Assembly: GCF_032362555.1 (NCBI RefSeq)
Contig: NC_083534.1
Location: 4,082,001-4,146,000, forward strand
Direction of reading: 5' to 3'
Source of the DNA: Amyelois transitella
Taxonomy: Eukaryota; Arthropoda; Insecta; Lepidoptera; Pyralidae
Length of the DNA: 64,000 nt
Part shown: positions 2,483-62,088 of the stretch, one piece after another
Layout: every line of letters begins with the position of its first letter
Position numbering within the stretch: position 1 is the first letter of the stretch
Notes under the pieces: generated by a model
Told to the model about the DNA's origin: nothing
Database searches by the model: none
Seen by the model: the letters and a program-made list of their open reading frames with translations, nothing else
Translations under genes and position numbers: made by a program

Positions 2483-2698
2483 ATGCTAGCCGTTTTATTA
2501 TTGAATCGAATGAGTATGAAAAGGCGTAGTTCTAAAAGGCAAAATGCATTTAAAATTGAGACTACAGTTGACAAAAAGCCTGGCGTACAGGATTTGTGCA
2601 GGACCTGCCTCAGTACGCAAGATTTGGTGTCTTTATTTTTCAATAAGGAAACCGAAAAAAAGAGGTCTGAAGACTTGAAACTTGTCACCGGTTTGGAG
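2483..2698 (+). CDS. ZAD-C2H2 gene exon 1 (first half of ZAD)
   Basis: 72 codons ending GLE/gtaaat. Contains CRTCLS, the first Cys pair of ZAD. A 24-bp-arm perfect hairpin follows 42 bp after the donor. Confidence 0.8.
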
Positions 2699-5600
2699 GT
2701 AAATTTATTTGTTATTAAAGTCCTTTGAGTTTTTGTTTATCTTTTAACCATGATATGGCAGAATTATGATTCTGCCATATCATGGTTAAAAGTCTGGTGG
2801 AAGCCATAACATAGAAAAGAAAGAGAGAAAGAGTTTTTGTTTACTTTGTTTTCTCCTTAAGTTATACCTACCACCAAATTTTTATTCACAAAATTCCTTT
2901 TATATGTGTTAGTTCTGTTTTAGGCAAAAGGGAAGTAAAATTAAATCAACAAAAACTAAAAATACTTAAACAACAAAAAATATTATACTCTTTAGTTTAA
3001 TTTTTTTTTTCTTATGTATGAAAAGCGAAATTATTTTACAAAACAGTTAAAAATTTATTGTGATTTCAGTCTTCTCCTATTTAAGATATAATTTTGTAAC
3101 TTGTAGTCCACCTGTGTAAAATGAAACATCCCTATAATTTCCTTAGCGTACTGCGGGTTTTTGAGAAATTGTTTCTTAGCGCACACCTAGACCACATAAC
3201 TCATCATAGGCTCACAAGGGACCGGAAAAAGTGGAAAGATCTGGAGGAGGCCTTTGTGTCTAAAGGATACGCTGATGGAGACTGATGTGTTTTTATTATA
3301 ACAGTTGTATATGTGTAATTGTAGAATCTGTATGTCAGCAATAAAGGCTTTTGAAATTGAAATATGTTTACAGATCAAAATGGACGATGAATTATCACAG
3401 AAAATATGCGTCAAATGCGTTGAAGCCATAAACAGCGCATTAACCTTTAGAAGGACGAGTCGGAAAGCCGAAAAAGCTCTGTTGTCTATGGCACCCGTAC
3501 CAAAAACAAAGAAAAAACACGAGGGCAAGTGCAAAAAGAGAGTTGCCAAGAAGAAAAATAAAAAATGTACTGAAAATGCGGATTTGGATTTTAAAAATGA
3601 AAACGATTTCGTTAATGATGATGATAATAATGACGGATTCAATAATGACGATTATGTTAATGATGTAAATGACGATTTTGTTAATGAAGTACTCGGTGAT
3701 GGTGTGAGGTCCGACAGTTTGAATGACGATACTCTAGAGGAGGCAGTTACGGTATATATTTATTTCTCATTAAAAAGGAGTTTTTTTTTTATATATTTTT
3801 GTGTGGTTCCCGGCACCAATACAAAAAAGAATAGGACCACTCCATTTCTTTCCCATGGATGTCGTAAAAGGCTACTAAGGGATAGGCTAACAGACTTGGG
3901 ATTCTTTTTTTAGGTGATGGGCTAGCAACCTCTATTTGAATCACAATTCTATCATTAAGCCAAATAGCTGAACGTGGTCATTCAGTCTTTTCAAGACTGT
4001 TGGCTCTGTCTACCCCGCAAGGGACATAGACGTGACCATATGTATGTATGTAAATATATTTTTATGTTGGTAAAAATATTTAAAAATTTAATTTATGAAC
4101 AGAAAATACATACATTAAATTACGCAGAGACTACATGTTTCCACTTTCTTCGATCTCTGCATACTTCCTTCGCTTCATCCAGATTCATAACTCTCTTCAT
4201 GCAAGATCGGCAGTTTCGGGTACACTTGACCTGAACTTTTACCAAGGACGTCCTTAATTCGATCAAGAAAAAGCGAAATGAAATAACAAATTATATATTA
4301 TTTTTGTTAAATGTTATTTTGTGTCATGGACATCATGACACAGTGACAGGTTGCTAACCCATCAAACCTACAAATTGAATCCCAAGTTTACTAGCCTATC
4401 CATTGGAAAGATATGGAGTCTTTCTTATCCAAAGTGCTGGGAACTACACAGCAAATAGAATAGAATAGATTTATTTTCAAAATTGGACACAAGGTATCAC
4501 TTATTGACGTGACATCACTCAAATCTAATTATAACTACTACCGCTTCCAAAGCTTGTGTATGTGTAGAGGAAGCGGCGGAACAAACTACACTGCAGCATT
4601 TTCATGGAGTTAACATTATTTTTTTTTACAGACAAGAAAACGAGTACACATTCCGAATGCGTCTTCCTACAAATGTCCTACTTGTAATAAGGAGTTTCGT
4701 ATGAAAACCACTTACAAGGCACATTTGAGATTCCACACAAATTATTGCGTTTGTGAGGTGAGAAACACATACATACATACATTCAATCACGTCTACATCC
4801 CCTGCGGGGTAGACAGAGCCAACAGTCTCGAAAAGACTGATATGTAATGTTTAGCTGTTTGGCTTGATGATAGAATTGAGATTCAAATATAATATAAGTG
4901 ATATGTTGCTATCCAATTGCTTACAAGAGGAACCCCTACTTTATAAACTTAGCCCATAGTCGCGTTTTACGACATCCGTGGGAAAGATATGGAGTGGTTC
5001 TATTCTTAAGTGCAGGAAACCACATGGCAACATTGTAACATAATAAGGCGACTAAGGGATAGGCTTATAAACTTGGGATTCTTCTTTGAGGCGATGGTCT
5101 TGCAACCTGTCACTATTTGAATCACAATTCTGTCATTAAGCCTAATAGCTGAACGCGGCCAATCATTCTTCCACGACTATTAGCTCTGTCTACCCCGCAA
5201 GGGATATAGACGTGTTCATATGCATATATCTATGTATATTTACTGACGGCCTCTGTGGCGCAGCGGCAGTACGCTTGTCTGTGACACCGGAGGTCCCGGG
5301 TTCGAATCCCGGCCAGGGCATGATGAGGAAAGAACTTTTTCTGATTGGCCTGAGACTTGGATGTTTATCTTTATAAGTATTTATTATAAATATCGTTGAG
5401 TTAGTGTCTCGTAACACAAGTCTCGAACTTACTTCGAGGCTAACTCGATCTGTGTAATTTGTCCCGTATATATTTATTTATATTTATTTATTTATATATT
5501 TTTCCAGTCGTGCGGTAAACGCTGCAGAAACAACAATCAGCTGCAGGAGCATAAACGGGCCCGACACGGTCTTGGCAGGATACACAAGTGCGCTTACTGT

Positions 5601-8600
5601 GAATACAGCTCGGCGACTAAGGAGGCTTTGGTGGTGAGTTTTTCGACACATACATACATAAATCCTACTACTATTATAAAGGCGAAAGTTTGTATGGATG
5701 TTTGTTACTCTTTCACGCAAAAACTACTGAACCGATTACCATGAAATTTGGTATGTAGGTAGCTGAAGACCCAGAAAAACACATAGGCTACTTTTTATCC
5801 CAGAGTTCCCGCGGGATTGATAGGGTTTCCATGCGGACGAAGTCGCGGGCGGCCTCTAGTAGGTACTTACATACATCTAGGTATCTATTCTATTCTTGTC
5901 TTGAAAACACTGAACTGCTTTATGATGGAATTGGTTGATACATATGTATTTCATTCATTCATATAATCACGTCTATATCCCTTGTGTGGTTGACAGAGCC
6001 AGAGCCAGTCTTGAAAGACTGATAGGCCACGTTCAGCTTTACGGCTGAATGATGGAATTGAGATTTAAATAAGTGACAGGTTGCTAGCCCATCGCCTTAA
6101 AAGAAGTATAAATCCAATAACTGTTTTTGTAATTTGTTATATTTATTTTTATGTGCAATAAAGTGTTAACAACAAACAAAAAGTAAATAACCAAATAAAA
6201 AGTTGTAAACTACCTACAACAACAAAAAAAAAAATAAACATCAAAAAAATTATTAAAAAAAAAATTAAAATTAAATAATTATCCGTTATTGTTGTATGAA
6301 GATACATGAGCGGCGTCACACCGGCGAGCGGCCGTACGTCTGCGATCATTGCGGCGCGACCTTCCATCGGCGCTCCAATCTGGTGCAGCATATAGCCATA
6401 CACCTGCCCGAGAAGAACTTCCAGGTGGGTTGTGGTCACGTCTTTTCACTTTACGGGGTAGACAGAGACTGTGACGGTTTGACATGACAGCATATACATA
6501 GCTATACACCTGCCAGCATATAGCCATTCACCTACCCGAGAAGAACTTCCAGATGGGTTGCGGTCACGTCTTCACACTTTACAGGGTAGACAGAGACTGT
6601 GACGGTTGGAGTATAATCAATTTGGTGCAGCACATGGCTATGCGAAGGTATGGCTATACCAGGTGTGTTGCGGTCACGTCTTTTCATTTTACGGGGTAGT
6701 CAGAGACTGCCGATTGGCGCCACGTTCCACCGGCGCTCCAACCTGGTGCAGCACATAGCTATACACCTGCCCGAGAAGAACTTCCAGGTGAGTTGCAGTC
6801 GCGTCTTCACAGTTTACGGGGCAGACAGAGACTGTGCCGGTTTGACATGACAGCATAGAGCTATACACCTGCCCGAGAAGGTGTTGTGGTCACGTCTTTT
6901 CACTTTACGGGGTAGACAGAGACTGTGACGGTTTGATATGACAGCATGTAGCCATACACCTGCCCGAGAAGAACTTCCAGGTGGGTTGTGGTCACGTCTT
7001 CACACTTTACGGGGTAGACAGAGACTGTGACGGTTTGACATGACAGCATATAGCTATACACCTGCCCGAGAAGAACTTCCAGGTGGGTTGTGGTCACGTC
7101 TTTACAGTTTATGGGGTAGACAGAGACTGTGACGGTTTGACATGACAGCACATAGCCATACACCTGCCCGAGAAGAACTTCCAGGTGGGTTGTGGTCACG
7201 TCTTCACACTTTACGGGGTAGACAGAGACTGTGGCGGTTGGAGTATAATCAATTTGGTGCAGCACATAGCCATACCAGGTGTGTTGCGTTCACGTCTTTT
7301 CACTTTACGGGGTAGACAGGCCTCGTGCCGGTTTGACATTATACACCTGCCCGAGATGGTGTTGTGGTTACGTCTTTTCACTTTACGGGGTAGACAGAGA
7401 CTGTGCCGGTTTGACATGACAGCACATAGCGATACACCTGCCCGAGAAGAACTTGCAGGTGGGTTGTGGTCACGTCTTCACACTTTACGGGGTAGACAGA
7501 GACTGTGACGGTTTCACATGACAGCACATAGCGATACACCTGCCCGAGAAGGTGTTGTGGTCACGTCTTTACACTTTACGGGGTAGACAGGGCCTGGTGC
7601 AGCATATAGCCATACACCTGCCCGAGAAGAACTTCCAGGTGTGTCGTGGTCACGTCTTCACACTTTACGGGGTAGACAGAGACTGTGCCGTTTGGACCAC
7701 ATCCAACTTTATCCTGCTCAGTATTCATAATTATGTGTGTGCGTTTCGTGACAATAGGGATGATGTCAAGGTCAAAACAAACAAGCACATTTGACCAATT
7801 TATCATAATTATAAGCACTCCACTTAGCCAACTAGCGTTTAAAATTAAGTAGTAAGAATGAGTTTGTGTCTTAAATTCCGCGGGAAAAGTACTTTTTAAA
7901 GAGATGAAAGGTAGACTATATCCTGCTCAGTATTCATAATTATGTGTGTGCGAAATTTCGTAACAATTCGTCCTGACGATAATGCGTTAGGATAACACAA
8001 ATAAACAAGAACATTTGACCAATTTATCGTATAAGTAAGTACTTTAAATAGCGTTTAAAATGAATTTAAGAAGTAGTAAGAATGAGTTTGTGTGTCCAAC
8101 AGTGCGACATGTGTCCGAAACGACTCAAGTCGCGCAAGTTCCTGCAGATACACAAACACAACGCGCACACGGGCCGCCGCTACGGCTACCTCTGCGCCGT
8201 GTGCGAGCACAGATTGTAGACACAGTTTATGTCATGCATTATATCAGCAAAATACATCTTTAAATCTGCTGACTTATATTCCATAGTTTATTAGCAAGTC
8301 GCTATAGGCAATGCTCCGGTATTAAAGTCTTAAATTCCGCGGGAAAAGTACTTTTTAAAGAGATGAAAGGTAGACTATATCCTGCTCAGTATTCATAATT
8401 ATGTGTGTGCGAAATTTCGTGACAATAGGAATGATGTTAAGGTCAAAACAATTATGATAATTATAAGCACTTCACCTAGCCAATTAGCCAAATGAGTTTG
8501 TGTGTTCAACAGTGCGACATGTGTCCGAAACGACTCAAATCGCGCAAGTTCCTGCAGATACACAAACACAACGCGCACACGGGCCGCCGCTACGGCTACC

Positions 8601-11600
8601 TCTGCGCCGTGTGCGAGCACAGATTGTAGACACAGTTTATGTCATACATTATATCAGCAAAATTCATCTTTAAATCTGCTGACTTATATTCCATAGTTTA
8701 TTAGCAAGTCGCTATAGGTATTACAGTCTTTAATTCCACAGTAAAAGTACTTTTTAAAGAGATGAAAGGTAGACTATATCCTGCTCAGTATTCATAATCA
8801 TGTGTGTGCGAAATTTCAAGGTCAGATGAATGGCGTCAAGGTCAAAACAATTATCATAATTATAAGCACTTCACCTAGCCAATTAGCCAAATAAGTTTGT
8901 GTGTCCAACAGTGCGACATGTGTCCGAAACGACTCAAGTCGCGCAAGTTCCTGCAGATACACAAACACAACGCGCACACGGGCCGCCGCTACGGCTACCT
9001 CTGCGCCGTGTGCGAGCACAGATTGTACACACAGTTTATGTCATGCATTAATATCAGCGAAATATCTTTAAATATGCTGACTTAGTTTATTAGCAAGTCG
9101 CTTTAGGCAATGCTCCGGTATTAGTCTTTAATTCCGTGGTAAAAGTACTTTTTAAAGAGATGAAAGGTAGACTATATCCAGCTCAGTATTCATAATTATG
9201 TGTGTGCGAGATTTCGTGACAATAGGGATGATTTCAAGGTCTAAACAATTATCATAATTATAAGCACTCCACCTAGCGTTTAAAATGAAGTAGTAAGAAT
9301 GAGTTTGTGTCTCCAACAGTGCGACATGTGTCCGAAACGACTGAAATCGCGCAAGTTCCTGCAGATACACAAACACAACGCGCACACGGGCCGCCGCTAC
9401 GGCTACCTCTGCGCCGTGTGCGAGCACAGATTGTAGACACAGTTTATGTCATGCATTATATCAGCAAAATATCTTTAAATCTGCTGACTTAAAATCCATT
9501 GTTTATTAGAAAGTCGCTATAGGCAACGCTCGGGTATTTAAGTCTGTAATTCCGCGGAAAAAGTACTTTTTAAAGAGATGAAAGGTAGACTATATCCTGC
9601 TCAGTATTCATAATTATGTGTGTGCGAAATTTCAAGGTCAGATTAATGGTGTCAAGGTCAAAACAATTATCATAATTATAAGCACTTCACCTAGCAAACT
9701 AGCGTTTAAAATGAAGTAGTAAGCATGAGTTTGTGTCTTAAATTCCGCGGGAACAAATAAGAACATTTGACCAATTTATCATATACCTAAGTACTTTAAC
9801 TAGCGTGTAAGAATAAGTTTGTGTGTTCAACAGTGCGACATGTGTCCGAAACGACTCAAATCGCGCAAGTTCCTGCAGATACACAAACACAACGCGCACA
9901 CGGGCCGCCGCTACGGCTACCTCTGCGCCGTGTGCGAGCACAGATTGTACACACAGTTTATGTCATACATTTTATCAGCAAAATATCTTTAAATCCGTTG
10001 TGATAATCTATTCGATAGTTTATTAGGAAGTCGCTTTAGGCAACGCTCGGGTATTAAAGTCTTAAATTCCGCGGGAAAAGTACTATTTAAAGAGATGAAA
10101 GGTAGACTATATCCTGCTCAGTATTCATAATAATGTGTGTGCGAAATTTCGTAACAATTCATCCTGAGGATAATGCGTTATGATAACAAATAAACAAGAA
10201 CATTTGACCAATTTATCATATACCTAAGTACTTTAACTAGCGTTTAAAATGAATTTAAGAAGTAGTAAGAATAAGTTTGTGTGTTCGACAGTGCGACATG
10301 TGTCCGAAACGACTGAAATCGCGCAAGTTCCTGCAGATACACAAACACAACGCGCACACGGGCCGCCGCTACGGCTACCTCTGCGCCGTGTGCGAGCACA
10401 GATTGTGGACACAGTTTATGTCATGCATTATATCAGCAAAATATCTTTAAATATGCTGACTTAGTTTATTAGCAAGTCGCTTTAGGCAACGCTCCGGTAT
10501 TTAAGTCTTTAATTTCACAGTTAAAGTACTATTTAAAGAGATGAAAGGTATACTATATCCTGCTCAGTATTCATAATTATGTGTGTGCGAAATTTCGTAA
10601 CAATTCATCCTGACGACAATGCGTTAGGAGAACACAAATAAACAAGAACATTTGACCAATTTATCGTATAAGTACTTTAACTAGCGTTTAAAATGAAGTA
10701 GTAAGAATAAGTTTGTGTGTTCAACAGTGCGACATGTGTCTGAAACGTCTGAAATCGCGCAAGTTCCTGCAGATACACAAACACAACGCGCACACGGGCC
10801 GCCGCTACGGCTACCTCTGCGCCGTGTGCGAGCACAGATTGTAGACACAGTTTATGTCATACATTATATCAGCAAAATATCTTTAAATCTGCTGACTTAG
10901 TTTATTAGCAAGTCGCTATAGGCAACGCTCGGGTATTAAAGTCTTAAATTCCGCGGGAAAAGTACTTTTTAAAGAGATGAAAGGTAGACTATAGCCTGCT
11001 CAGTATTCATAATTATGTGTGTGCGAGATTTCGTGACAATAGGGATGATGTCAAGGTCAAAACAAACAAGCACATTTGACCAATTATCATAATTATAAGC
11101 ACTCCACCTAGCCAATTAGTGTTTAAAATTAAGTAGTAAGAATGAATTTGTGTCTTAAATTCCGCGGGAACAAACAAGAACATTTGACCAATTTATCATA
11201 TAAGTATTTTACCTAGCGTTTAAAATGAAGTAGTAAGAATAAGTTTGTGTGTCCAACAGTGCGACATGTGTCCGAAACGACTCAAATCGCGCAAGTTCCT
11301 GCAGATACACAAACACAACGCGCACACGGGCCGCCGCTACGGCTACCTCTGCGCCGTGTGCGAGCACAGATTGTAGACACAGTTTATGTCATACATTATA
11401 TCAGCAAAATTCGTCTTTAAATCTGCTGACTTAATCTATTCGATAGTTTATTATAGTATATATATATATATATATATACTATAGGCAACGCTCCGGTATT
11501 AAAGTCTTAAATTCCGCGGGAAAAGTACTTTTTAAAGAGATGAAAGGTAGACTATATCCAGCTCTGTATTCATATCATTATGTGTTTACAAGGTCAAAAC

Positions 11601-13458
11601 AAACAAGCACATTTGACCAATTGTCATTGTTATTAGCACTCCACCTACCAACTAGCGTTTAAAATGAAATAGTAAGAATGAGTTTGTGTCTTAAATTCCG
11701 CGGGAACAAACAAGAACATTTGACCAATTTATCATATAAGTATTTTACCTAGCGTTTAAAATGAAGTAGTAAGAATAAGTTTGTGTGTTCAACAGTGCGA
11801 CATGTGTCCGAAACGTCTGAAGTCGCGCAAGTTCCTGCAGATACACAAACACAACGCGCACACGGGCCGCCGCTACGGCTACCTCTGCGCCGTGCGCGAC
11901 CACAGATTGTAGACACAGTTTATGTCATACATTATATCAGCAAAATATCTTTAAATCTGCTGACTTAATCTATTCGATAGTTTATTTAGCAAGTCGCTTT
12001 AGGCAACGCTCGGGTATTTAAGTCTTTAATTCTACGGGAAAAGTACTTTTTAAAGAGATGAAAGGTATACTATATCCTGCTCAGTATTCATAATTATGTG
12101 TGTGCGAGATTTCGTGACAATAGGGATGATGTCAAGGTCAAAATAATTATAAGCACTCCACCTAGCCAACTAGCGTTTGAAATGAAGTAGTAAGAATGAG
12201 TTTGTGTGTCCAACAGTGCGACATGTGTCCGAAACGTCTGAAGTCGCGCAAGTTCCTGCAGATACACAAACACAACGCGCACACGGGCCGCCGCTACGGC
12301 TACCTCTGCGCCGTGCGCGAGCACAGATTGTACACACAGTTTATGTCATACATTTTATCAGCAAAATATCTTTAAATCTGCTGACTTAAAATCCATTGTT
12401 TATTAGCAAGTCGCTTTAGGCAATGCTCCGGTATTAGAGTCTTAAATTCCGCGGGAAAAGTACTTTTTAAAGAGATGAAAGGTATACTATATCCTGCTCA
12501 GTATTCATAATTATGTGTGTGCGAGATTTCGTGACAATAGGGATGATGTCAAGGTCAAAATAATTATAAGCACTCCACCTAGCCAACTAGCGTTTGAAAT
12601 GAAGTAGTAAGAATGAGTTTGTGTGTCCAACAGTGCGACATGTGTCCGAAACGTCTGAAGTCGCGCAAGTTCCTGCAGATACACAAACACAACGCGCACA
12701 CGGGCCGCCGCTACGGCTACCTCTGCGCCGTGCGCGAGCACAGATTGTACACACAGTTTATGTCATACATTTTATCAGCAAAATATCTTTAAATCTGCTG
12801 ACTTAAAATCCATTGTTTATTAGCAAGTCGCTTTAGGCAATGCTCCGGTATTAGAGTCTTAAATTCCGCGGGAAAAGTACTTTTTAAAGAGATGAAAGGT
12901 ATACTATATCCAGCTCAGTATTCATAATTATGTGTGTGCGAAATTTCAAGGTCAGATTAATGGTGTCAAGGTCAAAACAAACAAGTACTTTTGACCAATC
13001 CTACTACTATTATAAAGGCGAAAGTTTGTATGGATGTTTGTTACTCTTTCACGCAAAAACTACTGAACCGATTACCATGAAATTTAGTATGTAGGTAGCT
13101 GAAGACCCAGAATAACACATTGGCTACTTTTTATCCCAGAGTTCCCGCGGGATTGATAGGGTTTCCATGCGGACGAAGTCGCGGGCGGCCTCTAGTTTAT
13201 CATATACCTAAGTACTTTAACTAGCGTGTAAGAATGAGTTTGTGTGTCCAACAGTGCGACATGTGTCCGAAACGTCTGAAATCGCGCAAGTTCCTGCAGA
13301 TACACAAACACAACGCGCACACGGGCCGCCGCTACGGCTACCTCTGCGCCGTGTGCGAGCACAGATTCGAGAAGCCTAACAAAGTGCGCGCGCACACGAG
13401 ACGCGTTCACGGTCTGCCGGATGAACAGCAACCGCCTATAGTTAGGGTGCAGTTGTAG
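2483..13458 (+). CDS. ZAD-type C2H2 zinc-finger protein, six fingers
   Basis: Six phase-0 exons: 2483-2698, 3374-3751, 4632-4757, 5508-5633, 6302-6424 and 13255-13458 (TAG), giving 390 aa. An N-terminal ZAD has C39-x2-C42 in exon 1 and C84-x2-C87 in exon 2, followed by a basic then Asn/Asp-rich linker. Six C2H2 fingers run from about residue 213: CPTC, CESC, CAYC, CDHC, CDMC and CAVC, each with 12 residues between the second Cys and first His. Fingers 2 and 3 are split by introns. ZAD fingers are insect nuclear DNA-binding regulators in which ZAD mediates dimerisation; the target here is unknown. M10 (2510) is an alternative start. An alternative last exon may lie at 15942-16175. Two exon arrays lie between exons 5 and 6. 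Confidence 0.85.
2741..2792. repeat. Perfect 24-bp inverted repeat with 4-bp loop
   Basis: Arms 2741-2764 and 2769-2792 are exact reverse complements around a TATG loop, inside intron 1 of the zinc-finger gene. Confidence 0.9.
3186..3290 (+). mobile_element. LINE ORF2 3'-end remnant
   Basis: The plus-strand frame reads RDRKKWKDLEEAFVSKGYAD then stop, like the C-terminal end of RTE/CR1-type LINE proteins. It lies in intron 1, about 85 bp before exon 2. Confidence 0.5.
3374..3751 (+). CDS. ZAD-C2H2 gene exon 2 (second half of ZAD and linker)
   Basis: The acceptor tgtttacag at 3373 was chosen over an upstream AG because it gives normal ZAD spacing up to KICVKCVEAI. The end is Lys-rich, then Asn/Asp-rich, closing at GTTACG/gtatat, phase 0. 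Confidence 0.78.
3801..4055 (+). mobile_element. SINE family A copy
   Basis: Head TGTGGTTCCCGGCACC to tail GACGTGACCATATGTATG, about 50 bp after the exon 2 donor. Confidence 0.8.
4118..4265 (-). mobile_element. RTE-like LINE 3' fragment
   Basis: Diverged copy of the 3' coding end of the LINE at 34960-37479 (matches CGATCTCTGCATACTTC, CTTCATGCAAGATCGG and GACGTCCTTAATTCGATCA). Confidence 0.7.
4445..4612 (+). mobile_element. Repeat family D (CCGCTTCCAAAGC ... CACTGCAGCATT)
   Basis: Begins AATAGAATAGATTTATTTTC and ends AACAAACTACACTGCAGCATT (split here as two parts of the same end). Related copies lie at 17015, 41137, 43560, 44470, 58216, 59345 (reverse), 60330 (reverse) and 60788. No coding capacity; a short non-autonomous element. 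Confidence 0.65.
4632..4757 (+). CDS. ZAD-C2H2 gene exon 3
   Basis: 42 codons; finger 1 (CPTC ... HLRFH) and the start of finger 2 (CVCE). A SINE tail begins within about 10 bp of the donor gtgaga. Confidence 0.82.
4767..5032 (-). mobile_element. SINE family A copy at the exon 3 donor
   Basis: Reverse copy whose (TACA)n tail starts about 10 bp after the splice donor at 4758. Confidence 0.8.
5044..5226 (+). mobile_element. SINE family A copy, 5' truncated
   Basis: Starts in the middle of the element (AGGCGACTAAGGGATAGGC) and keeps the 3' end GGATATAGACGTG. Confidence 0.75.
5246..5490 (+). mobile_element. tRNA-headed SINE, family B
   Basis: Best-preserved head in the window: GGCCTCTGTGGCGCAGCGG, then GGGTTCGAATCCCGGCC. 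Ends in a TATTTATTTA-rich tail just before exon 4. Confidence 0.85.
5508..5633 (+). CDS. ZAD-C2H2 gene exon 4
   Basis: 42 codons, acceptor tttttccag, donor gtgagt. Completes finger 2 and encodes most of finger 3 (CAYCEYSSATKEALV). Confidence 0.82.
5663..5859 (+). mobile_element. Helitron-like non-autonomous element, 197 bp
   Basis: Begins TCCTACTACTATTATAAAGG and ends GGGCGGCCTCTAG followed by T. The same 197-bp length recurs at 12999 and 28076. The 5'-TC and CTAG-3' ends and the A/T target match Helitrons (lepidopteran Lep1-like). Confidence 0.8.
5958..6115 (-). mobile_element. SINE family A fragment
   Basis: Reverse 3' half, from CACGTCTATATCCCTTG to the GGTTGCTAGCCCATCGCC block. Confidence 0.7.
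6302..6424 (+). CDS. ZAD-C2H2 gene exon 5
   Basis: 41 codons starting IHERRH, which closes finger 3 with exact C2-12-H3-H spacing, then finger 4 (CDHCGATFHRRSNLVQHIAIH) and LPEKNFQ, donor CAG/gtgggt. The acceptor (gtatgaag) has a weak pyrimidine tract. Its 3' half is the seed of the array that follows. Confidence 0.8.
6385..7690 (+). repeat. Tandem array 1: exon 5 3' end + donor + SINE tail, about 100-bp units
   Basis: About ten imperfect units. Each joins CACCTGCCCGAGAAGAACTT, the exon 5 donor context CCAGGTGGGTTG, and GGTCACGTCTT ... ACGGGGTAGACAGAGAC, which is the reversed tail of SINE family A. The copy at 6710-6787 keeps more of the exon (GATFHRRSNLV onward) with a gtgagt donor. Some units are shortened (near 6866, 7347, 7539). 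The long ORFs through this stretch follow from repetition, not from independent genes. Confidence 0.88.
8103..8219 (+). pseudogene. Truncated exon 6 copy 1
   Basis: 38 codons from CDMC to CEHRL, then TAG. Encodes finger 5 and the two Cys of finger 6. The CAG acceptor is intact. Confidence 0.85.
8513..8629 (+). pseudogene. Truncated exon 6 copy 2
   Basis: Same 38 codons, TAG. Differs from copy 1 in this exon only by a synonymous AAA/AAG. Confidence 0.85.
8912..9085 (+). pseudogene. Truncated exon 6 copy 3 (read-through class)
   Basis: TAG is replaced by TAC after HRL, so the frame runs on for 19 more residues (YTQFMSCIN ...) to TAG at 9083. An extra base in the tail sets this frame apart from the other read-through copies. 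Confidence 0.83.
9320..9436 (+). pseudogene. Truncated exon 6 copy 4
   Basis: 38 codons then TAG. Carries CTG and AAA at the variable Leu and Lys codons. Confidence 0.85.
9834..9992 (+). pseudogene. Truncated exon 6 copy 5 (read-through class)
   Basis: TAC at the stop position; 14 extra residues to TAA at 9990. Confidence 0.83.
10292..10450 (+). pseudogene. Truncated exon 6 copy 6 (read-through class)
   Basis: TGG at the stop position; 14 extra residues to TAA at 10448. Acceptor context is GTTCGACAG instead of GTTCAACAG. Confidence 0.83.
10728..10844 (+). pseudogene. Truncated exon 6 copy 7
   Basis: TAG class. CCG to CTG changes Pro5 to Leu next to the second zinc Cys; it also has the CGT Arg codon found in copies 9-12. 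Confidence 0.85.
11260..11376 (+). pseudogene. Truncated exon 6 copy 8
   Basis: TAG class. A perfect AT-rich palindrome is inserted downstream in this unit at about 11452-11484. Confidence 0.85.
11796..11912 (+). pseudogene. Truncated exon 6 copy 9
   Basis: TAG class. TGC to CGC replaces the second zinc Cys of finger 6 by Arg, and Glu becomes Asp next to it. Confidence 0.85.
12217..12375 (+). pseudogene. Truncated exon 6 copy 10 (read-through class)
   Basis: Cys to Arg as in copy 9, TAC at the stop position, TAA at 12373. Its unit is almost identical to the next one over 417 bp. Confidence 0.85.
12634..12792 (+). pseudogene. Truncated exon 6 copy 11 (read-through class)
   Basis: Same exon sequence as copy 10, 417 bp downstream: the most recent duplication in the array. 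Confidence 0.85.
12999..13195 (+). mobile_element. Helitron-like element inserted in array 2
   Basis: 197 bp from TCCTACTACT to CCTCTAG. Removing it restores GACCAATTTATCATATACC, present uninterrupted in the unit at about 9768. Paralogous units thus give an exact empty site, with insertion between A and T and no target duplication. Confidence 0.9.
13255..13458 (+). CDS. ZAD-C2H2 gene exon 6 (complete terminal exon)
   Basis: 67 codons then TAG. Finger 5 (CDMC ... HKHNAH) and complete finger 6 (CAVCEHRFEKPNKVRAHTRRVH), then a short Pro-containing tail ending RVQL. It is the only one of twelve copies that continues past CACAGATT, so it is the probable parental exon. Confidence 0.85.
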   Translation, partial: CDMCPKRLKSRKFLQIHKHNAHTGRRYGYLCAVCEHRFEKPNKVRAHTRRVHGLPDEQQPPIVRVQL

Positions 13459-15941: not shown

Positions 15942-16175
15942 TGTGAACATTGCGACAAACGCGAATATTCGCAGAAACGTCTCAACCTGCACATCTATTG
16001 CCGTCACAAGATAACCAACTACAGATTCATGTGTCCAATGTGCGCCGGAGTCTTCACCAGGCCGAGGAATGTGAGGAAGCACCTGACGAGGATCCATGGC
16101 GTCGCCAGGCCGGATCAGGGCCGGATTGAGAAGATAGAGAAGATGATGGTGCCGCTGGCGTCTTATGCTTGTTAG
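15942..16175 (+). CDS. Alternative C2H2 terminal exon of the zinc-finger gene (or last exon of a related gene)
   Basis: Strong acceptor (long pyrimidine run then cag), 77 codons, TAG at 16173. Starts directly with CEHC as exon 6 starts with CDMC, and holds two C2H2 fingers (CEHC ... HIYCRH and CPMCAGVFTRPRNVRKHLTRIH) with spacing like fingers 5 and 6, then a charged tail ending MVPLASYAC. Its phase fits splicing from exon 5 (6424). Two terminal exons of matching design point to alternative 3' splicing; the alternative is a tandem gene fragment. A polyadenylation signal AATAAA lies at 16197. Confidence 0.7.
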   Translation, partial: CEHCDKREYSQKRLNLHIYCRHKITNYRFMCPMCAGVFTRPRNVRKHLTRIHGVARPDQGRIEKIEKMMVPLASYAC

Positions 16176-17567: not shown

Positions 17568-18141
17568 ACATACATACATAAAATCACGCCTCTTTCCCGG
17601 AGGGGTAGGCAGAGACTACCTCTTTCCACTTGCCACGATCTCTGCATACTTCTTTCGCTTCGTCCACATTCATAACTCTCTTCATACAAGCTCGGCGGTT
17701 TCGGGTACTTTTGACCTGACCCTTTACCAGGACGTCCTTAATTTGATCAAGATACGTTCGTCTAGGTCTTCCCACTCCGACCTTTCCCTCCACACTCTCC
17801 TTGTATATCTGCTTAGTCAACCTGCTTTCATTCATCCTCTCCACATGACCGAACCATCTTAACATACCCTTTTCTATTCCTGTAACTACATCTTCTTTCA
17901 CATCACAACATTCCCTTATCACGCTGTTCCTTATCCTGTCACTCAATTTCACACCCATCATACTCCTTAACGCTCTCATTTCCACTGCATTTATTCTGCT
18001 TTCATGCTTCTTTTGCCATACCCAACTTTCACTCCCATACATTAATGTCGGGACCAACACGCCCCTGTGCACAGCCAGTCGAGCCTTTTTGGATAGTTTC
18101 TGACTGCTCATAAAGGCATGCAAAGCTCCATTCACCATTTA
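17568..18141 (-). mobile_element. RTE-like LINE, 5'-truncated recent copy
   Basis: 184 codons from the LINE C-terminal region, reading the same protein as the longer copy at 34979-35535. I see a single base difference in the stretch compared (near 17907). The (TACA)n end is intact. Truncation falls at the MVNGALHAF codons. Confidence 0.88.
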
Positions 18142-26500: not shown

Positions 26501-29500
26501 GCCACGTGGACGAAGTCGCGAGCACAGCTAGTCCTAAATATAAATATATTGTTACCCGAATAAAAGTAACCTTTTTTATTATACACTTTACACATTTTTT
26601 CTCTTTATAATAAGTAAGTATACTTACATTGATCATGTCAGATCAGGAAAAGGTAAAGATAATTACATGAAATTTTCTTTATTTTTACAGCTTATGGACC
26701 ACCACAGATGGTGCCCCAGCAAGTAAGTGTATTTATCTATACATATATATAAAAGCGAAAAACACTCACTTAGGAATCACGAAATCTCGAAATCTAATGA
26801 GCCAATATAGATGAAATTTGGCAGGAAGGTAGATTTTAATTAGGATTTTTGAAAATTGCATTCCTAAGGGGGTGAAATAGGGGTTGCAACTTTGTATGAA
26901 ACTTCGTCATTTTTAGTGTGGGATAATTACTTGAAATTTTAGATTTAAATTTACGGTTAGATTAAAATAATAATTCATTAATTAAATTTTGAAAATTGCA
27001 TTCCTAAGGGGGTGAAATAGGGGTTGCAACTTTGTATGAAACTTCGTCATTTTTAGTGTTGGATACATTATATTTAAATTCACGGTTAGATTAAAATATT
27101 AATTCATTTATTGGATTTTGAAAATTGCATTCCTATAGGGGTGAAATAGGGGTGGTAAGTTTGTATGAAATTTTGTCATTATTTCATGTGTCCAACATTA
27201 TATATATAATGTTGGACACATGAAATTAGTAAAAAATTCGAATACAGTAATAAGATTTTAAAAATTGCATTCCTAATAAATAGGGGTTGTAAATTTGTAT
27301 GAAATTTCGTCAATTTTAAAGTTGGGCATTTGAAATTTTATAATTTAATTTTGGTTAGTATGAAATAATCATTAAAACATTGGATTTTGAAAACTGCATC
27401 TCAAGGGCGAAAAATAAGGGTTGGAAGTTTGTATGAAACTTCGATTTTTGATGGGTGTCGAAGTGCGAGAAGTCTTAAATATTGGTTAGTAAAAAATAGA
27501 TATGTACGTATCAGTTGCGGAAAGCAGGATGGCACTACATAGGATGGGATGGGACAGGATAGGACTGGACGGCGCAGAACGGGACACAACTTTTTTTTGT
27601 GCGATGGACTAGCAACCAAACAAAGGAAACAAAAGTTGAAAGCCAAACAGTTGAACGAACGAGGCCTATCAGTCTTTTTATGACTGTTGGCTCTGTCTAC
27701 CCCGCAAGGGATATAGACGTGACCATATGTATGTATGTATGTATCGTTGAGTTAGTATCTCGAAACACAAGTCTCGAACTCACTTCGAGGCTAACTCAAT
27801 CTGTGTAATTTAATTTGTCCCGCATAATATATATATTTATTTATTTAAAAAAAATACCAAAAGAATATAACTTATGTGTGTTTATACGTTATGTTTTTTT
27901 GGTAGGTATATATACCATATTGGTATATACAATCAACTATATAAATAATACAAGTAATATGTTATCTATATAAGAATTTATTATACAATACAGTATCGTT
28001 GAGTTAGTATCTCGTAACACAAGTCTCGAACTCACTTCGAGGCTAACTCGATCTGTGTAATTTGTCCCGTATATATCCTACTACTATTATAAAGGCGAAA
28101 GTTTGTATGGATGTTTGTTACTCTTTCACGCAAAAACTACTGAACCGATTACCATGAAATTTGGTATGTAGGTAGCTGAAGACCCAGAATAACACATAGG
28201 CTACTTTTTATCCCAGAGTTCCCGCGGGATTGATAGGGTTTCCATGCGGACGAAGTCGCGGGCGGCCTCTAGTATATATATATATTTATTCACAGCAAGC
28301 AAGAGGCGGCGGTGCGGGCGCTGGTCGAATGCTGGGCGCCGGCCTCGCTGGCATGGCCGCTGGGGGCCTGACGGGATTCGCAGCTGGTGGTGGATTTAAC
28401 CCTAATGTAAGTTTATTATATACCTCACATCTATACTAATATTACATACATACATACATATGGTCACGTCCACGTACATACATACATACATACATATGGT
28501 CACGTCTATATCCCTTGCGGGGTAGACAGAGCCAACAGTGTTGAAAAGACTGAATGGCCACGTTCAGCTATTTGGCTTTATGATAGAATTGAGATTCAAA
28601 TAGTGACAGGTTGCTAGCCCATCGCCTAAAGAAGAATTCCAAGTTTGTAAGCCTATCCCTTAGTCGCCTTTTACGACATCCATGGGAAAGAGATGGAGTG
28701 GTCCTATTCTTTTTTTTAATTGGTGCCGGGAACCACACAGCATTATAAATGCTATACTAATATTATAAATGCGTAAGTTTGTGAGTATGTCAGGATGGCA
28801 GTATGGATGTTTGTTACTCTTTCACGCAAAAACTACTGAACCGATTATTACGATGAAATTTTATTATGTAGGTAGCTGAAGACCCAGAATAACATATAGG
28901 CTATACTTTTTATCCCGGAGTTCCCGCGGGATTGATAGGGTTCCCTTGCGGACGAAGTCGCGGGCGCAACTGCGTAATACGTAATATAACTGAATGTAAC
29001 ATATAATCACGTCCTCATCCTCTGCGGGGTAGACAGAGCGAACAGTCATCATAAGACTGGATGGCCACGTTCAGCTGTTTGGTTTAATGATGGAATTGAG
29101 TTTCAAATAGTGACAGGTTGCTAGCCCATCGCCTAAAAGAGGAATCCTAAGTATATATGCTTATATACTTGGATATATAATAACTTAAATAGTTTATGAT
29201 TTAGATGTACAATTCTTTATTTTCATAACTACTATTTAACGCAACGTTTTTTTTTTAATTTATTTATTAAGGTAGTCATACGAGTACAGACAGATTACAA
29301 AATTGCGCTATTATCCTTAGGAAATATAGTATTTATTATATAGTGAACAAGTAAAATGTCCAACTTTAGTGTAGGTACTACTAATGAGTCATCATTAACA
29401 GAACAAGAACTCGAACAACAAGACATTAAAACAAAAAAACGTTTGTATTACATGTACAATCGCGTCTTTCTATTTTCGAAAATTGATAATTGAATGAATA

Positions 29501-34959: not shown

Positions 34960-37479
34960 CATACATACATACATAAAATCACGCCTCTTTCCCGGAGGGG
35001 TAGGCAGAGACTACCTCTTTCCACTTGCCACGATCTCTGCATACTTCTTTCGCTTCGTCCACATTCATAACTCTCTTCATACAAGCTCGGCGGTTTCGGG
35101 TACTTTTGACCTGACCCTTTACCAGGACGTCCTTAATTTGATCAAGATACGTTCGTCTAGGTCTTCCCACTCCGACCTTTCCCTCCACACTCTCCTTGTA
35201 TATCTGCTTAGTCAACCTGCTTTCATTCATCCTCTCCACATGACCGAACCATCTTAACATACCCTTTTCTATTCCTGTAACTACATCTTCTTTCACATCA
35301 CAACACTCCCTTATCACGCTGTTCCTTATCCTGTCACTCAATTTCACACCCATCATACTCCTTAACGCTCTCATTTCCACTGCATTTATTCTGCTTTCAT
35401 GCTTCTTTTGCCATACCCAACTTTCACTCCCATACATTAATGTCGGGACCAACACGCCCCTGTGCACAGCCAGTCGAGCCTTTTTGGATAGTTTCTGACT
35501 GCTCATAAAGGCATGCAAAGCTCCATTCACCATGTTCCCCGCGTTCACTCTCCTTTCAATATCACTATCATACTTGCCATCTGATGTAAACTTTGATCCT
35601 AGATATACAAACTCTTTCACTTGCTCCACTTTTTCTCCTGCAATCAAAATATTACATGCTGTCATTTCTTTCTCCATTTCAAAAACCAGTGTTTTAGTTT
35701 TACTTACGTTCACTTTCATTCCTTTCTCTTTTAAAGCTTCATGCATACAGTTTACCATCTCCTGTAACTCCTCCGCTGATGACGCCAGTATAACCTGATC
35801 GTCGGCATAGAGCAGACATTTGACGAGTAACTCATTCATCCTTAATCCACTTTTAGACTCTTTCAAAACTGTCAAACAGCTATCCATAAATAGGTTGAAC
35901 AGCCACGGTGACGCAACACATCCTTGCCTAACGCCTTTCTCAATCTTAAACCACTCAGTGTGCGCTCCGTTTATCCTGACACAAGCACTCGAATCCTCAT
36001 ATAAGGATTTCAGTGCTCGTATTAAGAGACTGCTCACCCCATGCATAGAAAGTGCTGACCACAATTCATTCCTCTCAACTCTGTCATAGGCCTTTTCCAG
36101 ATCTACGAATGTGCAATAGACTTTTTGACTCTTGGCCAAAAACTTTTCGGCTATGCACCGCAAGGAAAAGACCTGATCGGTACATCCCATTCCCTTTCGA
36201 AATCCCGCTTGAGCATCCCATATTTTGTCATCAGTTTCATTCCTGACTCTATTAATCAATACCTTAGCATACAATTTGCCGACGACGCTAAGCAGGCTTA
36301 TACCACGATAATTTTTGCAGTCCAGCTGTGACCCTTTTCCTTTGTAAAGTGGCACGATAACAGCCTTACACCAATCTTTTGGTACTCGGCCACTTCTCCA
36401 ACACAAATTGAAAAGGCAGTACAACTGACTAGCTACTACGCCTTTTCCTGCTTTAAGCATCTCGACCGACACTCTATCACACCCAGCAGCCTTTCCCGCT
36501 TTCATACTCTTAAGTGCTTCCACAATTTCGAACATTTCAATTTCGCCTTCCATCTCATTCTCTTTTTCTTCGCTATAGCAGAAATCTTTCTTATTTCCTT
36601 CCTTTTTTTCAAATAAACTTTCAAAATAGTCCTTCCATATCTTTAGTACACATTCTTCTCCTTTCACAACGCTACCATCCTGGCATCTGATCCTAGTCAG
36701 CTCTCTGGTTATAGTATTTCCTCGGGCTGACCTTACGGATTTCCAGAATACTTTCAGATTTGACTGAAAGTCTTCTGATAGCCTTTTATCAAAATCCTCT
36801 TTATACTCTTCTTTCTTTCTAATCACAGCTTTCTTAACCAAATCTTTCATTTTCTTATATTCCTTACGTGCTTCATTCACATCTTCATCTATAACCTCTT
36901 GCATTCTTAAGTTAGCTTTTGCTGCTAACAAATCCAGCCATGCTTTCTTCTTTAATCGCACAAGTTCTTGCACATCTTTACTCATCCACGCATTTTTGTG
37001 ATTTTTTCCTTTCCTTCTTCTACTTACACCACACACTTCAACAGCTACTTTCACAATTCTTTCTTTAAATTCCTTCCATCCATCTTCAATATCGCTCATT
37101 TCCTCTAAATCTTCAAATTCATCCTTCAGTCTATTAATATACTTCTTACCTACATCCATATCTTGCAAATTTTCTACTTTTACTCTTTCCAAAGCGCTGG
37201 TTTGCTCCCTTACCCTGTGCCGCCAGCGATTGAAGATACCCCTTATCCGGGATATCACCAGTAAATGGTCCGAGTCAATGCCAGCACCGCGATATGCACG
37301 GGTATCCAGCACTTTGTTCTTCAATCTTTCATCTACAATCACAAAGTCTATCATACTTTTTAAAATACCTTCCACTCTTGTGTAGGTGTGGATCTCTTTA
37401 TGTTGAAACATTGAGTTCGACACAAAAAGATCCCACTCTAGACAAATTTCTAATATACTTAAACTGTTACTTACTTAAG
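34960..37479 (-). mobile_element. RTE-like LINE, 5' truncated, with 14-bp target duplication
   Basis: ATGTTGTCAACATA flanks both ends (34946-34959 and 37480-37493). The 3' end is (ATGT)n as in RTE-type LINEs. Shorter copies occur at 4118, 17568, 18615, 37672, 55764 and 56672. Confidence 0.88.
34979..37423 (-). CDS. LINE ORF: endonuclease C-terminal part plus reverse transcriptase
   Basis: 814 codons from the first ATG; the frame stays open upstream for about 15 codons to the truncation point. N-terminal part: end of an AP-type endonuclease (IDFVIVDERL, GIDSDHLLV). The RT domain has AVIVPLYKGKGS, NYRGISLLSVVGKLYAKVL, TFVDLEKAYDRV, GVRQGCVASPWLFNLFMD and the catalytic LLYADDQVIL at about residues 540-550. 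The C-terminal region holds MLRWFGHVERM and GVGRPRRTYLDQI, common in insect RTE-like LINEs. Most of the endonuclease is missing, so this copy cannot retrotranspose alone, but the RT frame has no stop or frameshift, indicating recent insertion. Clade assignment is from memory. Confidence 0.88.
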   Translation of the reverse strand: MSNSMFQHKEIHTYTRVEGILKSMIDFVIVDERLKNKVLDTRAYRGAGIDSDHLLVISRIRGIFNRWRHRVREQTSALERVKVENLQDMDVGKKYINRLKDEFEDLEEMSDIEDGWKEFKERIVKVAVEVCGVSRRRKGKNHKNAWMSKDVQELVRLKKKAWLDLLAAKANLRMQEVIDEDVNEARKEYKKMKDLVKKAVIRKKEEYKEDFDKRLSEDFQSNLKVFWKSVRSARGNTITRELTRIRCQDGSVVKGEECVLKIWKDYFESLFEKKEGNKKDFCYSEEKENEMEGEIEMFEIVEALKSMKAGKAAGCDRVSVEMLKAGKGVVASQLYCLFNLCWRSGRVPKDWCKAVIVPLYKGKGSQLDCKNYRGISLLSVVGKLYAKVLINRVRNETDDKIWDAQAGFRKGMGCTDQVFSLRCIAEKFLAKSQKVYCTFVDLEKAYDRVERNELWSALSMHGVSSLLIRALKSLYEDSSACVRINGAHTEWFKIEKGVRQGCVASPWLFNLFMDSCLTVLKESKSGLRMNELLVKCLLYADDQVILASSAEELQEMVNCMHEALKEKGMKVNVSKTKTLVFEMEKEMTACNILIAGEKVEQVKEFVYLGSKFTSDGKYDSDIERRVNAGNMVNGALHAFMSSQKLSKKARLAVHRGVLVPTLMYGSESWVWQKKHESRINAVEMRALRSMMGVKLSDRIRNSVIRECCDVKEDVVTGIEKGMLRWFGHVERMNESRLTKQIYKESVEGKVGVGRPRRTYLDQIKDVLVKGQVKSTRNRRACMKRVMNVDEAKEVCRDRGKWKEVVSAYPSGKEA

Positions 37480-38136: not shown

Positions 38137-58984
<20,848 letters not shown>

Positions 58985-59970: not shown

Positions 59971-62088
59971 CTGTAATAGAATAGACATTACATTACATTA
60001 CTTTACATTACATTACATCACATTACATTACATTACATTACTTCACATTACATTACATTACATATGGTCACGTCTGTATCCCTTGCGGGGTAGACAGATC
60101 CAACAGTCTTGAAAAGACTGAATGGCCACGTTCAGCTGTTTGGCTTAATGAGAATTGTAATTCAAATAGTGACAGGTTGCTAGCACATCGCCTAAAAAAA
60201 GAATCCTAAGTTTGTAAGCCTATCCTTTAGTCGCCTTTTACGACATCCATGGGAAAGGTATAGAGTGGTTCTATGAAAACCACACGACAATATATATCAC
60301 ATCACATCATATAATCTTAATTCTATCATTAAGCAAATGCTGCAGTGCAGTGCCCGACACTGCGGCCGCTTCTTCGGCACTGACGCTTTGGAATAGTTAC
60401 TAATAGAAAACGTAGTTTTAAGTCTGTATATGACAATTGATTAGTGACTAGAGGCCGCCCGCGACTTCGTCCGCATGGAAACCCCATCAATCCCGCTGGA
60501 ACTCCGGGATAAAAAGTAGCCTATATGTTATTCTGGGTCTTCAGCTACCTACATACCAAATTTCATCGTAATCGGTTCAGTAGTTATTGCGTGAAAGAGT
60601 AACAAACATCCATACTGACATCCTGACATACTAACAAACTTTCGCATTTATAATATTAGTGGGATTCACACATTTTTAGAGATTAATTTCTTATATTTTA
60701 ATTGATAACGTCATTGTTTTATAAATAATAATTAAACTGAACTCAAATCAAAACTAAAGCTATATCTACCATAATAATGAAAAAAAAACTCAAATTCAAA
60801 TTCAAAATTTTTATTCATTACTATAGGATACTTCATATCGCTTAATAATTGTCAAAACGTATGGTTTAACAACATTGGTTGACGTCAAATAAATTACTTA
60901 AAACTAACTTTACTGGTGCAGAAGAAGTGGTAACAAACTGCACTGCAGCATTTTTTTCAACAACGTCAATAATTTATTATATATATTATGTTATACAAAC
61001 AATAATAATTTGAATTAAAAATAGATACATTCTTTTTTAATTAAAAGTTTAATAATTTTTACCTGGCCATCCGGCGCTGTGTACTGATATTGTCCTTCAA
61101 CGACTAAACTAGACTCGCCGCCCGGATTTGCTTGCAAGGAACCACGCTGCTCGTGGTAGATACCTCCCTCTGAAAAAATATCATTACGGTAAGATAATTT
61201 ATATTTGTCAAAACACGTAATCGTACATTCATGTTTAACCGTTATTATGTAGTAGTTAAGATAAAGATAATTTATATTTGTCATAACAAGTAATCGTACA
61301 TTCTTGTCCATTATTATATACTAGCTGTGCCCGCGGTTCGTTCGCGTGGAATAGTTATTTTAGGCATCAGTGAAGCCCTCAAGGGTGAATAATTTTCCCC
61401 GTTTTTTTTTCACATTTTCCATTTTTTCTTCGCGTCTAATAGTTTCAGCGTGATGTTATATAGCCTTAAGCCTTCCTCGATAAACGGTCTATTCAACACA
61501 AAAATAATTTTTCAATTCGAACCAGTAGTTCCTGAGATTAGCGCGTTCAACAAACAAACTTTTCAGCTTCATAATATTAGTATGTATAGATAATAGAACA
61601 CTAAACAGTGTGGTTCCCGGCACTAATAGAAAAATAATAGGACTCTCTCCTCGTCTCTTTCCAATGGATGTCGTAAAAGGCGACAAAGGAATATGCTTGT
61701 AAACTTAGGATTCTTCTTATAGGCGATATGCTAACAACCGGTCACTATTTGAATCTTAATTCCATCGCTAAGCTAACAGCTGAACGTGGCCTGTCAGTCT
61801 TTCAAGACTGCTGGCTCTGTCTACACAAGGGTTATAGACGTGATTATATGCATACATACATACATATGGTCACGTCTATATCCCTTGCGGGGTAGACAGA
61901 GCCAACAGTCTTGAAAAGGCTGATTATATGAATGAATGAAAATTAAGATAAACAAAAATCGAAATACAAAAACACAAGTTACCAGTTTGCAACGCCCATT
62001 TATACGACCCGTCAGCGTCAGGTCCTTCAAAGTCATTCCGAACTATCATGTCATTATTCTGCCCTTGTATAGAAGTTACCGCCAAAAA
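59827..62088 (-). CDS. RR-1-type cuticle protein, three exons, start exon missing
   Basis: Exons 62088-61983, 61169-61063 and 59970-59827 (TGA) join in phase to 117 residues. [10 protein letters not shown] looks like the end of a secretion signal peptide; then [30 protein letters not shown] and [17 protein letters not shown] form a Rebers-Riddiford (RR-1 type) chitin-binding domain, followed by a Pro-rich [16 protein letters not shown] tail. The product should be secreted by epidermis into the procuticle and bind chitin. The signal peptide needs an upstream exon (at most about ten residues), which I could not find between 62089 and 63600. Convergent with the reductase. Confidence 0.88.
59995..60295 (-). 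mobile_element. SINE family A copy with an (ACATT)n-type tail
   Basis: Reverse copy preceded by repeated ACATTACATT units (59990-60060), directly after the acceptor of the cuticle terminal exon. Confidence 0.78.
60448..60664 (-). mobile_element. Helitron-like element, 217 bp
   Basis: Reverse copy: CTAGAGGCCGCCCGCGACTT to AATATTAGTGGGA. Related to the 197-bp family but with a longer inner segment. Confidence 0.78.
60788..60965 (+). mobile_element. Repeat family D copy
   Basis: CTCAAATTCAAATTCAAA to AACTGCACTGCAGCATTTTT, in a cuticle gene intron. Confidence 0.68.
61063..61169 (-). CDS. Cuticle protein exon (RR core)
   Basis: 107 nt, acceptor tttttcag, donor CAG/gtaaaa. Encodes [13 protein letters not shown] and the [10 protein letters not shown] core. 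Confidence 0.9.
61321..61590 (-). mobile_element. Helitron-like element, family H2
   Basis: Reverse copy, CTAGCTGTGCCCGCGGTTCG to ATTAGTATGTATAGA. Confidence 0.75.
61608..61935. mobile_element. SINE A copies in tail-to-tail arrangement
   Basis: A plus copy (61608-61855) is followed directly by a reversed 3' fragment (61858-61930), making a palindromic tail junction. Confidence 0.75.
61983..62088 (-). CDS. Cuticle protein exon (signal end and RR start)
   Basis: 106 nt, acceptor ttttcag, donor ACTG/gtaact; phase 0 in, one base over. Confidence 0.85.

What the first reader, a model, noticed from the sequence alone, without database searches (positions are those of the whole stretch)
7700..13458. 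Eleven-fold tandem amplification of a truncated zinc-finger exon in front of the complete exon
Twelve copies of the last zinc-finger exon lie in a row; eleven break after CACAGATT, inside finger 6, and only the last is complete. Every copy keeps an acceptor (CAACAG or CGACAG) and the open frame. If used as terminal exons they would give a protein with five fingers and a half finger; otherwise they are decoy acceptors. I know of no named system with this arrangement.
Basis: seen in the sequence. Interest (0 to 1): 0.85.

Follow-up and report, generated by a model that had tools for sequence, protein, structure and literature searches.

The report
Tandem array of truncated zinc-finger exons
In a moth's zinc-finger gene, the first part of one of two alternative last exons has been copied eleven times in a row in front of the intact exon, most likely as a side effect of local DNA duplication, leaving twelve near-identical splice acceptors as a natural test of how cells choose where to splice.

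Summary
The array is real in this sequence: 12 copies of the 5' part of one zinc-finger exon (8103-13458), 11 broken after CACAGATT, all 12 with an AG acceptor and an open frame to the break. The gene is a ZAD-C2H2 gene with relatives in many moths and butterflies. The intact copy (A, 13255) and a downstream exon (B, 15942) are alternative last exons; relatives carry A-type and other ends on the same 5' part. One tandem duplication with its right end inside exon A, then amplification, explains the common break and why only the last copy is complete. Four more units have lost the exon, three copies lost a cysteine present in 43 of 43 A tails of relatives, and poly(A) signals are not enriched: all against use as terminal exons. 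Against plain drift: the exon varies less than its flanks, at amino-acid-changing sites rather than silent ones; copying from the intact, selected exon is my preferred reason, selection on the copies a rival. The other side of the same intron is also amplified: 7 extra copies of exon 5's 3' end. No RNA, reads or second genome were available, so splicing is untested.

The parts
2483..2698 (+). Exon 1 of the ZAD-C2H2 gene (ATG and first half of zf-AD), predicted
   Evidence: GT donor and frame; zf-AD positions 1-37, 18.3 bits, below cut-off
3374..3751 (+). Exon 2 (second half of zf-AD and linker), predicted
   Evidence: AG/GT, frame; zf-AD 29.5 bits, cut-off 28, for the longer reading frame 3302-3796
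4632..4757 (+). Exon 3, finger 1 and first residues of finger 2
   Evidence: AG/GT, frame; zf-C2H2 24.3 bits, just below cut-off 25.2
5508..5633 (+). Exon 4, rest of finger 2 and most of finger 3
   Evidence: AG/GT, frame
6302..6424 (+). Exon 5, end of finger 3 and finger 4; donor CAG|GTGGGT
6480..7690 (+). Array of about 102-bp units with the 3' end of exon 5, its donor and a piece of a dispersed repeat; 7 extra exon-5 ends, 6 with GT, one with AT
7702..8102 (+). 5' edge of the exon-A array: partial unit and one exon-less unit (junction at 7863)
8103..8215 (+). Truncated exon-A copy 1
8513..8625 (+). Truncated exon-A copy 2
8912..9024 (+). Truncated exon-A copy 3
9320..9432 (+). Truncated exon-A copy 4
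9730..9746 (+). Exon-less unit junction (TTTGTGTCTTAAATTCC)
9834..9946 (+). Truncated exon-A copy 5
10292..10404 (+). Truncated exon-A copy 6 (CGACAG acceptor)
10728..10840 (+). Truncated exon-A copy 7 (P to L)
11147..11163 (+). Exon-less unit junction
11260..11372 (+). Truncated exon-A copy 8
11683..11699 (+). Exon-less unit junction
11796..11908 (+). Truncated exon-A copy 9 (zinc-ligand Cys to Arg; E to D)
12217..12329 (+). Truncated exon-A copy 10 (Cys to Arg)
12634..12746 (+). Truncated exon-A copy 11 (Cys to Arg)
12997..13200 (+). Insertion of a dispersed repeat about 55 bp upstream of the intact exon (98.5% to 28075-28277 and to 5661-5860)
13255..13458 (+). Complete alternative last exon A (fingers 5 and 6, stop)
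15942..16175 (+). Alternative last exon B (two other fingers, stop), ATTAAA/AATAAA from 16179

Best explanation
A neutral intragenic tandem duplication inside the intron between exon 5 and the alternative last exon A of a conserved lepidopteran ZAD-C2H2 gene. Inferred steps: (1) one duplication whose right end fell in exon A after CACAGATT joined truncated exon A to upstream intron sequence (CACAGATT|GTAGACACAG); (2) unequal exchange and local duplication amplified the roughly 400-bp unit, deleted the exon from some units and shuffled unit segments; (3) units were re-seeded from, or converted with, the intact, selected exon, so that copies differ little at amino-acid sites while silent sites and indel-rich flanks drifted. 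The gene works through exon 5 to complete A (13255) or to B (15942); truncated copies are mostly spliced out as intron, with occasional mis-splicing to a short or NMD-prone transcript. The structure and marks of recombination are shown; the order of events, neutrality and splicing are inferred.
For: One shared junction in 11 of 11 truncated copies. 4 exon-less units. Copies 10 and 11 differ by 1.0% in the flank, other pairs by 2.6-17.7%, so amplification spans a range of ages. Of 16 informative columns, 80 of 120 site pairs are incompatible with one tree; a PHI-like permutation gives p=0.005-0.006, or 67 of 105 and p=0.026 with the doubtful flank end cut off. Copies 9-11 carry Arg at a Cys found in 43 of 43 A tails. 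AATAAA/ATTAAA: 7 at 7701-13254 against a mean of 9.8 in 300 mononucleotide shuffles; a signal in 5 of 11 truncated units. Of 67 anchored relatives 43 have A-type and 24 other tails; Plutella P0050/P0056 share 301 residues and split at the last exon. Exon 5's 3' end is amplified on the other side of the same intron, as expected where only copies that leave an intact outer exon are tolerated.
Against: Exon columns vary in 6 of 113 against 50 of 192 in flanks (p=2.5e-6); without the outlier copy 8 and the doubtful flank end, 6 of 113 against 30 of 173 (p=0.003). Silent sites are then not slower than the flank (3 of about 23, p=0.77) while amino-acid sites are (3 of about 88, p=0.001); the direct contrast is p=0.10. 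This fits selection on the peptide, either in the intact exon from which copies were drawn (my reading) or in the copies themselves. No exon indels against about 4 expected (P=0.02). All 12 acceptors are kept. No transcript data.
Confidence: 0.74

Rival explanations
1. The truncated copies are used as alternative terminal exons, giving a ZAD protein with five fingers and half a sixth.
For: Acceptors nearly identical over 20 nt to the intact exon's, same phase and open frame in 11 of 11; amino-acid sites vary less than flanks while silent sites do not; 5 of 11 units have AATAAA or ATTAAA.
Against: No enrichment of poly(A) signals and none in 6 of 11 units; two different kinds of 3' end; 4 units have lost the exon; a Cys present in 43 of 43 A tails is lost in 3 copies. 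None of the 91 proteins has such an end, weak evidence because they are other species that may lack the array.
Confidence: 0.08
2. The copies are decoy acceptors that lower the output of isoform A or shift the A/B choice according to copy number.
For: 12 near-identical acceptors with 9-10 pyrimidines of 17 lie before B's, with 17 of 17; A and other ends are alternatives in relatives.
Against: Conservation of the array could not be tested; exon-less units exist; the same effect would follow as an unselected side effect.
Confidence: 0.1
3. Assembly artefact: one or two real copies expanded during assembly.
For: Copies 10 and 11 differ by 1.0% in the flank and 0 of 113 in the exon.
Against: 52 of 55 pairs differ by 4% or more in the flank, plus private indels and exon-less units, which assembly error does not usually invent. 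The exact count could still be off by a few.
Confidence: 0.04

Closest known systems
Alternative zinc-finger last exons on a shared 5' part, as in Drosophila lola (PMC1947980, passages read)
   Same: Common N-terminal exons joined to different C-terminal zinc-finger exons; here A and B.
   Different: ZAD, not BTB; two ends found in the window, not about 20; trans-splicing not tested; the truncated copies are not distinct isoform exons.
Exon gain and loss at Drosophila Gr39a (PMC2204066, passages read)
   Same: Tandem copies of one alternative exon, some degraded, with recent duplication and/or conversion.
   Different: There large exons spliced to common small exons, up to seven copies; here one shared truncation, 11 copies, at the acceptor side of a last exon.
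Tandem 90-bp exon arrays of Tetrahymena LRR genes (PMC6564038, passages read)
   Same: Exon plus intron units amplified, proposed by unequal crossing over, possibly with retrotransposition.
   Different: There every 90-bp exon contributes to the protein; here truncated copies with no evident usable 3' boundary.
Dscam exon arrays (PMC3236188, passages read)
   Same: Many tandem exon copies in one gene.
   Different: Dscam copies are mutually exclusive, diverged and without conversion signal; these are truncated, near-identical and show incompatible sites.

Membership tests
ZAD-C2H2 zinc-finger proteins | zf-AD domain at the N-terminus | tested here: met
   Exon 2 reading frame 29.5 bits against cut-off 28; exon 1 frame 18.3, below; spliced protein aligns over 100% of the query to moth proteins listed with PF07776, e.g. 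P0002
ZAD-C2H2 zinc-finger proteins | C2H2 fingers | tested here: met
   Exon 5: zf-C2H2 27.7 bits, above cut-off 25.2; exons 3, A and B match zf-C2H2 below cut-off but keep the C-C-H-H motif; fingers 2 and 3 span exon joins, read
Alternative-last-exon zinc-finger genes (lola-like architecture) | Same 5' exons joined to different finger-bearing last exons | tested here: met
   Gene models of one species, with equal contig length, share a prefix and differ in tail: P0050/P0056, 301 aa, split at the last exon; P0004/P0026, 229 aa, then P0004 carries the repeated exon 3. In the window by phase only
lola family proper | BTB domain | tested here: not met
   zf-AD instead; no BTB hit in the 7 pieces scanned
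Mutually exclusive exon cluster (Dscam-like) | Complete, diverged exons with both splice sites | tested here: not met
   11 of 12 truncated; 0-5 differences per 113 nt between copies
Tandem intragenic duplication array with exchange between units | Common breakpoint and exchange between units | tested here: met
   One junction in 11 of 11; 80 of 120 site pairs incompatible, p=0.005; p=0.026 with a shorter flank
Functional terminal exons | Transcripts ending in the array | not testable with these tools
   No RNA data available

The most novel reading that the evidence does not exclude
The truncated copies are kept by selection as a copy-number-tuned splice trap: twelve matched acceptors compete for exon 5, so the number of units sets how much full six-finger isoform A, short five-finger isoform or isoform B is made, and the gene repeatedly evolves such partial-exon arrays in different moth families.
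Probability: 0.08. Interest if true: 0.85.

Novelty: new variant of a known kind. Interest (0 to 1): 0.42.

Why it matters
Twelve near-identical acceptors in one intron, only the farthest with a complete exon, are a natural experiment on acceptor choice and last-exon definition. Partial-exon repeats in gene models of relatives in other families (Cydia, Choristoneura, Operophtera) hint that the locus is prone to them. If the copies are merely intronic debris, it is an instructive case of dead exon copies that still look alive because they are drawn from a selected exon.

Tried and rejected
Rejected: Dscam-like diversification (copies nearly identical and truncated); the unit as an element dispersed elsewhere in the window (exon A and two unit queries against the window with 6481-13458 masked gave only AT-repeat matches); enrichment of poly(A) signals; a full assembly artefact.

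Led nowhere: the genome search on the window's own genome, the same request sent five times, never answered, so copies elsewhere in the genome are unknown. Paper searches 'tandem exon duplication'+zinc finger+Lepidoptera and 'alternative last exons'+zinc finger+tandem duplicat+insect gave 0 papers; the listings showed no title or abstract start describing such a case. PMC8998645 (passages) was not relevant.

Corrected on the way: my first tail counts used a pattern that itself demanded the cysteines, so its '42 of 42' was circular; one search chose tails by anchor and score and gives 43 of 43 for the Cys and 41 of 43 for the Pro. The BLAST sorting of tails misplaced some proteins; I use (67 of 91 with the anchor, 24 dropped), taking an A score of 239 or more as A-type, which moves five proteins that labels A (P0026, P0056, P0072, P0073, P0079) to non-A; some non-A proteins are probably paralogs. 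The flank rate is raised by copy 8 and by a doubtful flank end; one search repeats it without them. One of the nine flank gap intervals was made by the partial 5' row; one search counts eight. Because silent sites then show no deficit, I lowered the best explanation from 0.78 to 0.74 and raised the use-based rivals slightly. In flank comparisons copy 12 was left out because its 3' flank is not homologous, and the partial 5' unit was left out. The 72-nt block test (P=0.007; 0.04 without copy 8 and with the shorter flank) was chosen after seeing the data.

Control for partial-exon repeats: exact internal repeats of 15 residues or more in 6 of 76 related proteins against 0 of 61 in one other ZAD gene family (the query family's closest listed hits plus members met; one has a 13-residue repeat); without Logan ('lgn') sequences 6 of 72 against 0 of 29. 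One of the six (P0001) looks to me like two fused paralogous genes; the other five come from four species. The 76 are the first 75 hits plus P0078, added because of its repeats, so the count is biased upwards and not firm.

Full report
What is there. The window is most likely from a moth (inference): the spliced protein's best matches are moths and butterflies, led by Aphomia sociella (72% over 84% of the query) and Plodia interpunctella (77% over 100%). The gene has five predicted common exons (2483-2698, 3374-3751, 4632-4757, 5508-5633, 6302-6424), each a multiple of three long, with GT donors and, from exon 2 on, AG acceptors. They code a zf-AD domain and four fingers (fingers 2 and 3 span exon joins and are read). 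Two possible last exons follow in the same phase: A (13255-13458, fingers 5 and 6) and B (15942-16175, two other fingers). Relatives carry both kinds of end. Of 91 hits, 67 have the anchor before the last exon; 43 score as A-type and 24 as other types. Plutella P0050 and P0056 are identical for 301 residues and then diverge at this junction. Choristoneura P0078 has an A-type stretch directly followed by a B-type stretch, the order seen in the window.

The array. Twelve copies of the 5' part of exon A start at 8103 to 13255; 11 of 12 break after CACAGATT and continue with GTAGACACAG, GTACACACAG or GTGGACACAG. In 6 of 11 the frame stops at once, in 5 of 11 it runs 14-19 residues further. The acceptors are nearly identical over 20 nt, including that of the intact copy; 11 of 12 have 9 pyrimidines of 17 and copy 4 has 10, while B has 17. 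Four further units lack the exon and acceptor because of a junction TTTGTGT|CTTAAATTCC at 7863, 9730, 11147 and 11683. A 200-bp dispersed repeat ends about 55 bp before the intact exon. The sequence after the intact exon's stop matches dispersed repeats from about 13506, and the nearest AATAAA/ATTAAA for A starts 873 nt after the stop, against 4 nt for B.

Other side of the intron. Right after exon 5, about 6480-7690 holds 102-bp units with the 3' end of exon 5, its donor and a piece of a repeat found at 13 other places in the window. Seven extra exon-5 ends are present; six keep GT at the donor and one (6546) has AT. Both borders of one intron are thus reiterated inward, with the intact exons on the outside. 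Tandem duplication of segments with one end in an exon does this mechanically; duplications that spoil the outer intact exon would be lost (inference).

Why the exon looks preserved. In copies 1-11 the exon differs by 2.1% per pair, the flank by 7.9%, and 6 of 113 exon columns vary against 50 of 192 flank columns (p=2.5e-6). Copy 8 and the far flank end inflate this; without them it is 6 of 113 against 30 of 173 (p=0.003). A 72-nt block has no variable column, a stretch picked after the fact. Of the six variable sites, three are silent (21, 24, 27) and three change an amino acid: P to L in copy 7, C to R in copies 9-11, E to D in copy 9. In A tails of relatives that Cys is C in 43 of 43 and the Pro P in 41 of 43. 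Silent sites are not slower than the trimmed flank (p=0.77), amino-acid sites are (p=0.001); silent against amino-acid sites directly is p=0.10. So the exon carries a weak mark of selection on the peptide. It can come from the intact exon if units are repeatedly drawn from it, or from the copies. Sites 24 and 27, three bases apart, show all four combinations, and 80 of 120 informative site pairs are incompatible with one tree: exchange between units or repeated mutation. I prefer exchange with, and re-seeding from, the intact exon; selection on each copy is not excluded, although three copies carry the Cys loss.

Function. If copies were terminal exons, poly(A) signals might be enriched; 7 were found at 7701-13254 against 9.8 in shuffles, and 6 of 11 units have none. 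None of 91 related proteins ends in such a truncated tail, which says little for a species not among them. No transcripts could be examined. The most likely working gene joins exon 5 to intact A or to B.

Recurrence. Gene models of relatives show partial-exon repeats: exon 3 in Cydia strobilella (P0003, P0006) and C. pomonella (P0004); exon 5 and the end of A in Operophtera brumata (P0054); eight occurrences of a B-end motif in Choristoneura fumiferana (P0078). The count (6 of 76 against 0 of 61 in one control family) is suggestive, not firm: P0001 looks like a gene fusion, P0078 was added by hand, and none of these assemblies was checked.

Comparison. The shared-5'/alternative-last-exon plan works like lola (PMC1947980) but is not lola (zf-AD; no BTB hit). 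Exon gain and loss with possible conversion is described at Gr39a (PMC2204066), unequal crossing over of exon units in Tetrahymena (PMC6564038). I read passages of these, not whole papers. An eleven-fold array of an acceptor-bearing truncated last exon did not appear in my listings, which cover only an open-access library. Verdict: real, unusual, most likely a neutral variant of tandem exon duplication; good as a splice-choice test case.

Noticed in passing
6480-7690: About 102-bp array of the 3' end of exon 5 with its donor: 7 extra exon ends, 6 with GT, one with AT.
   Followed up: partly
P0003, P0004, P0006 (Cydia), P0054 (Operophtera), P0078 (Choristoneura), gene models of relatives: Partial-exon internal repeats in the same gene in other moth families, hinting at a duplication-prone locus.
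   Followed up: partly
12997-13200; also 5661-5860, 28075-28277, 60447-60666: Dispersed repeat of about 200 bp; one copy ends just before the intact exon's acceptor.
   Followed up: partly
45455-49345 (+) and 50284-54266 (-): Long open frames that read to me like LTR retrotransposon gag-pol proteins; seen only in the ORF list.
   Followed up: no
34979-37474 (-) and 17584-18138 (-): Open frames that read to me like a non-LTR reverse transcriptase; the second repeats the end of the first.
   Followed up: no
5249-5320 (+): tRNA-His-like call (ARAGORN), probably a tRNA-derived SINE; another at 39613-39690.
   Followed up: no
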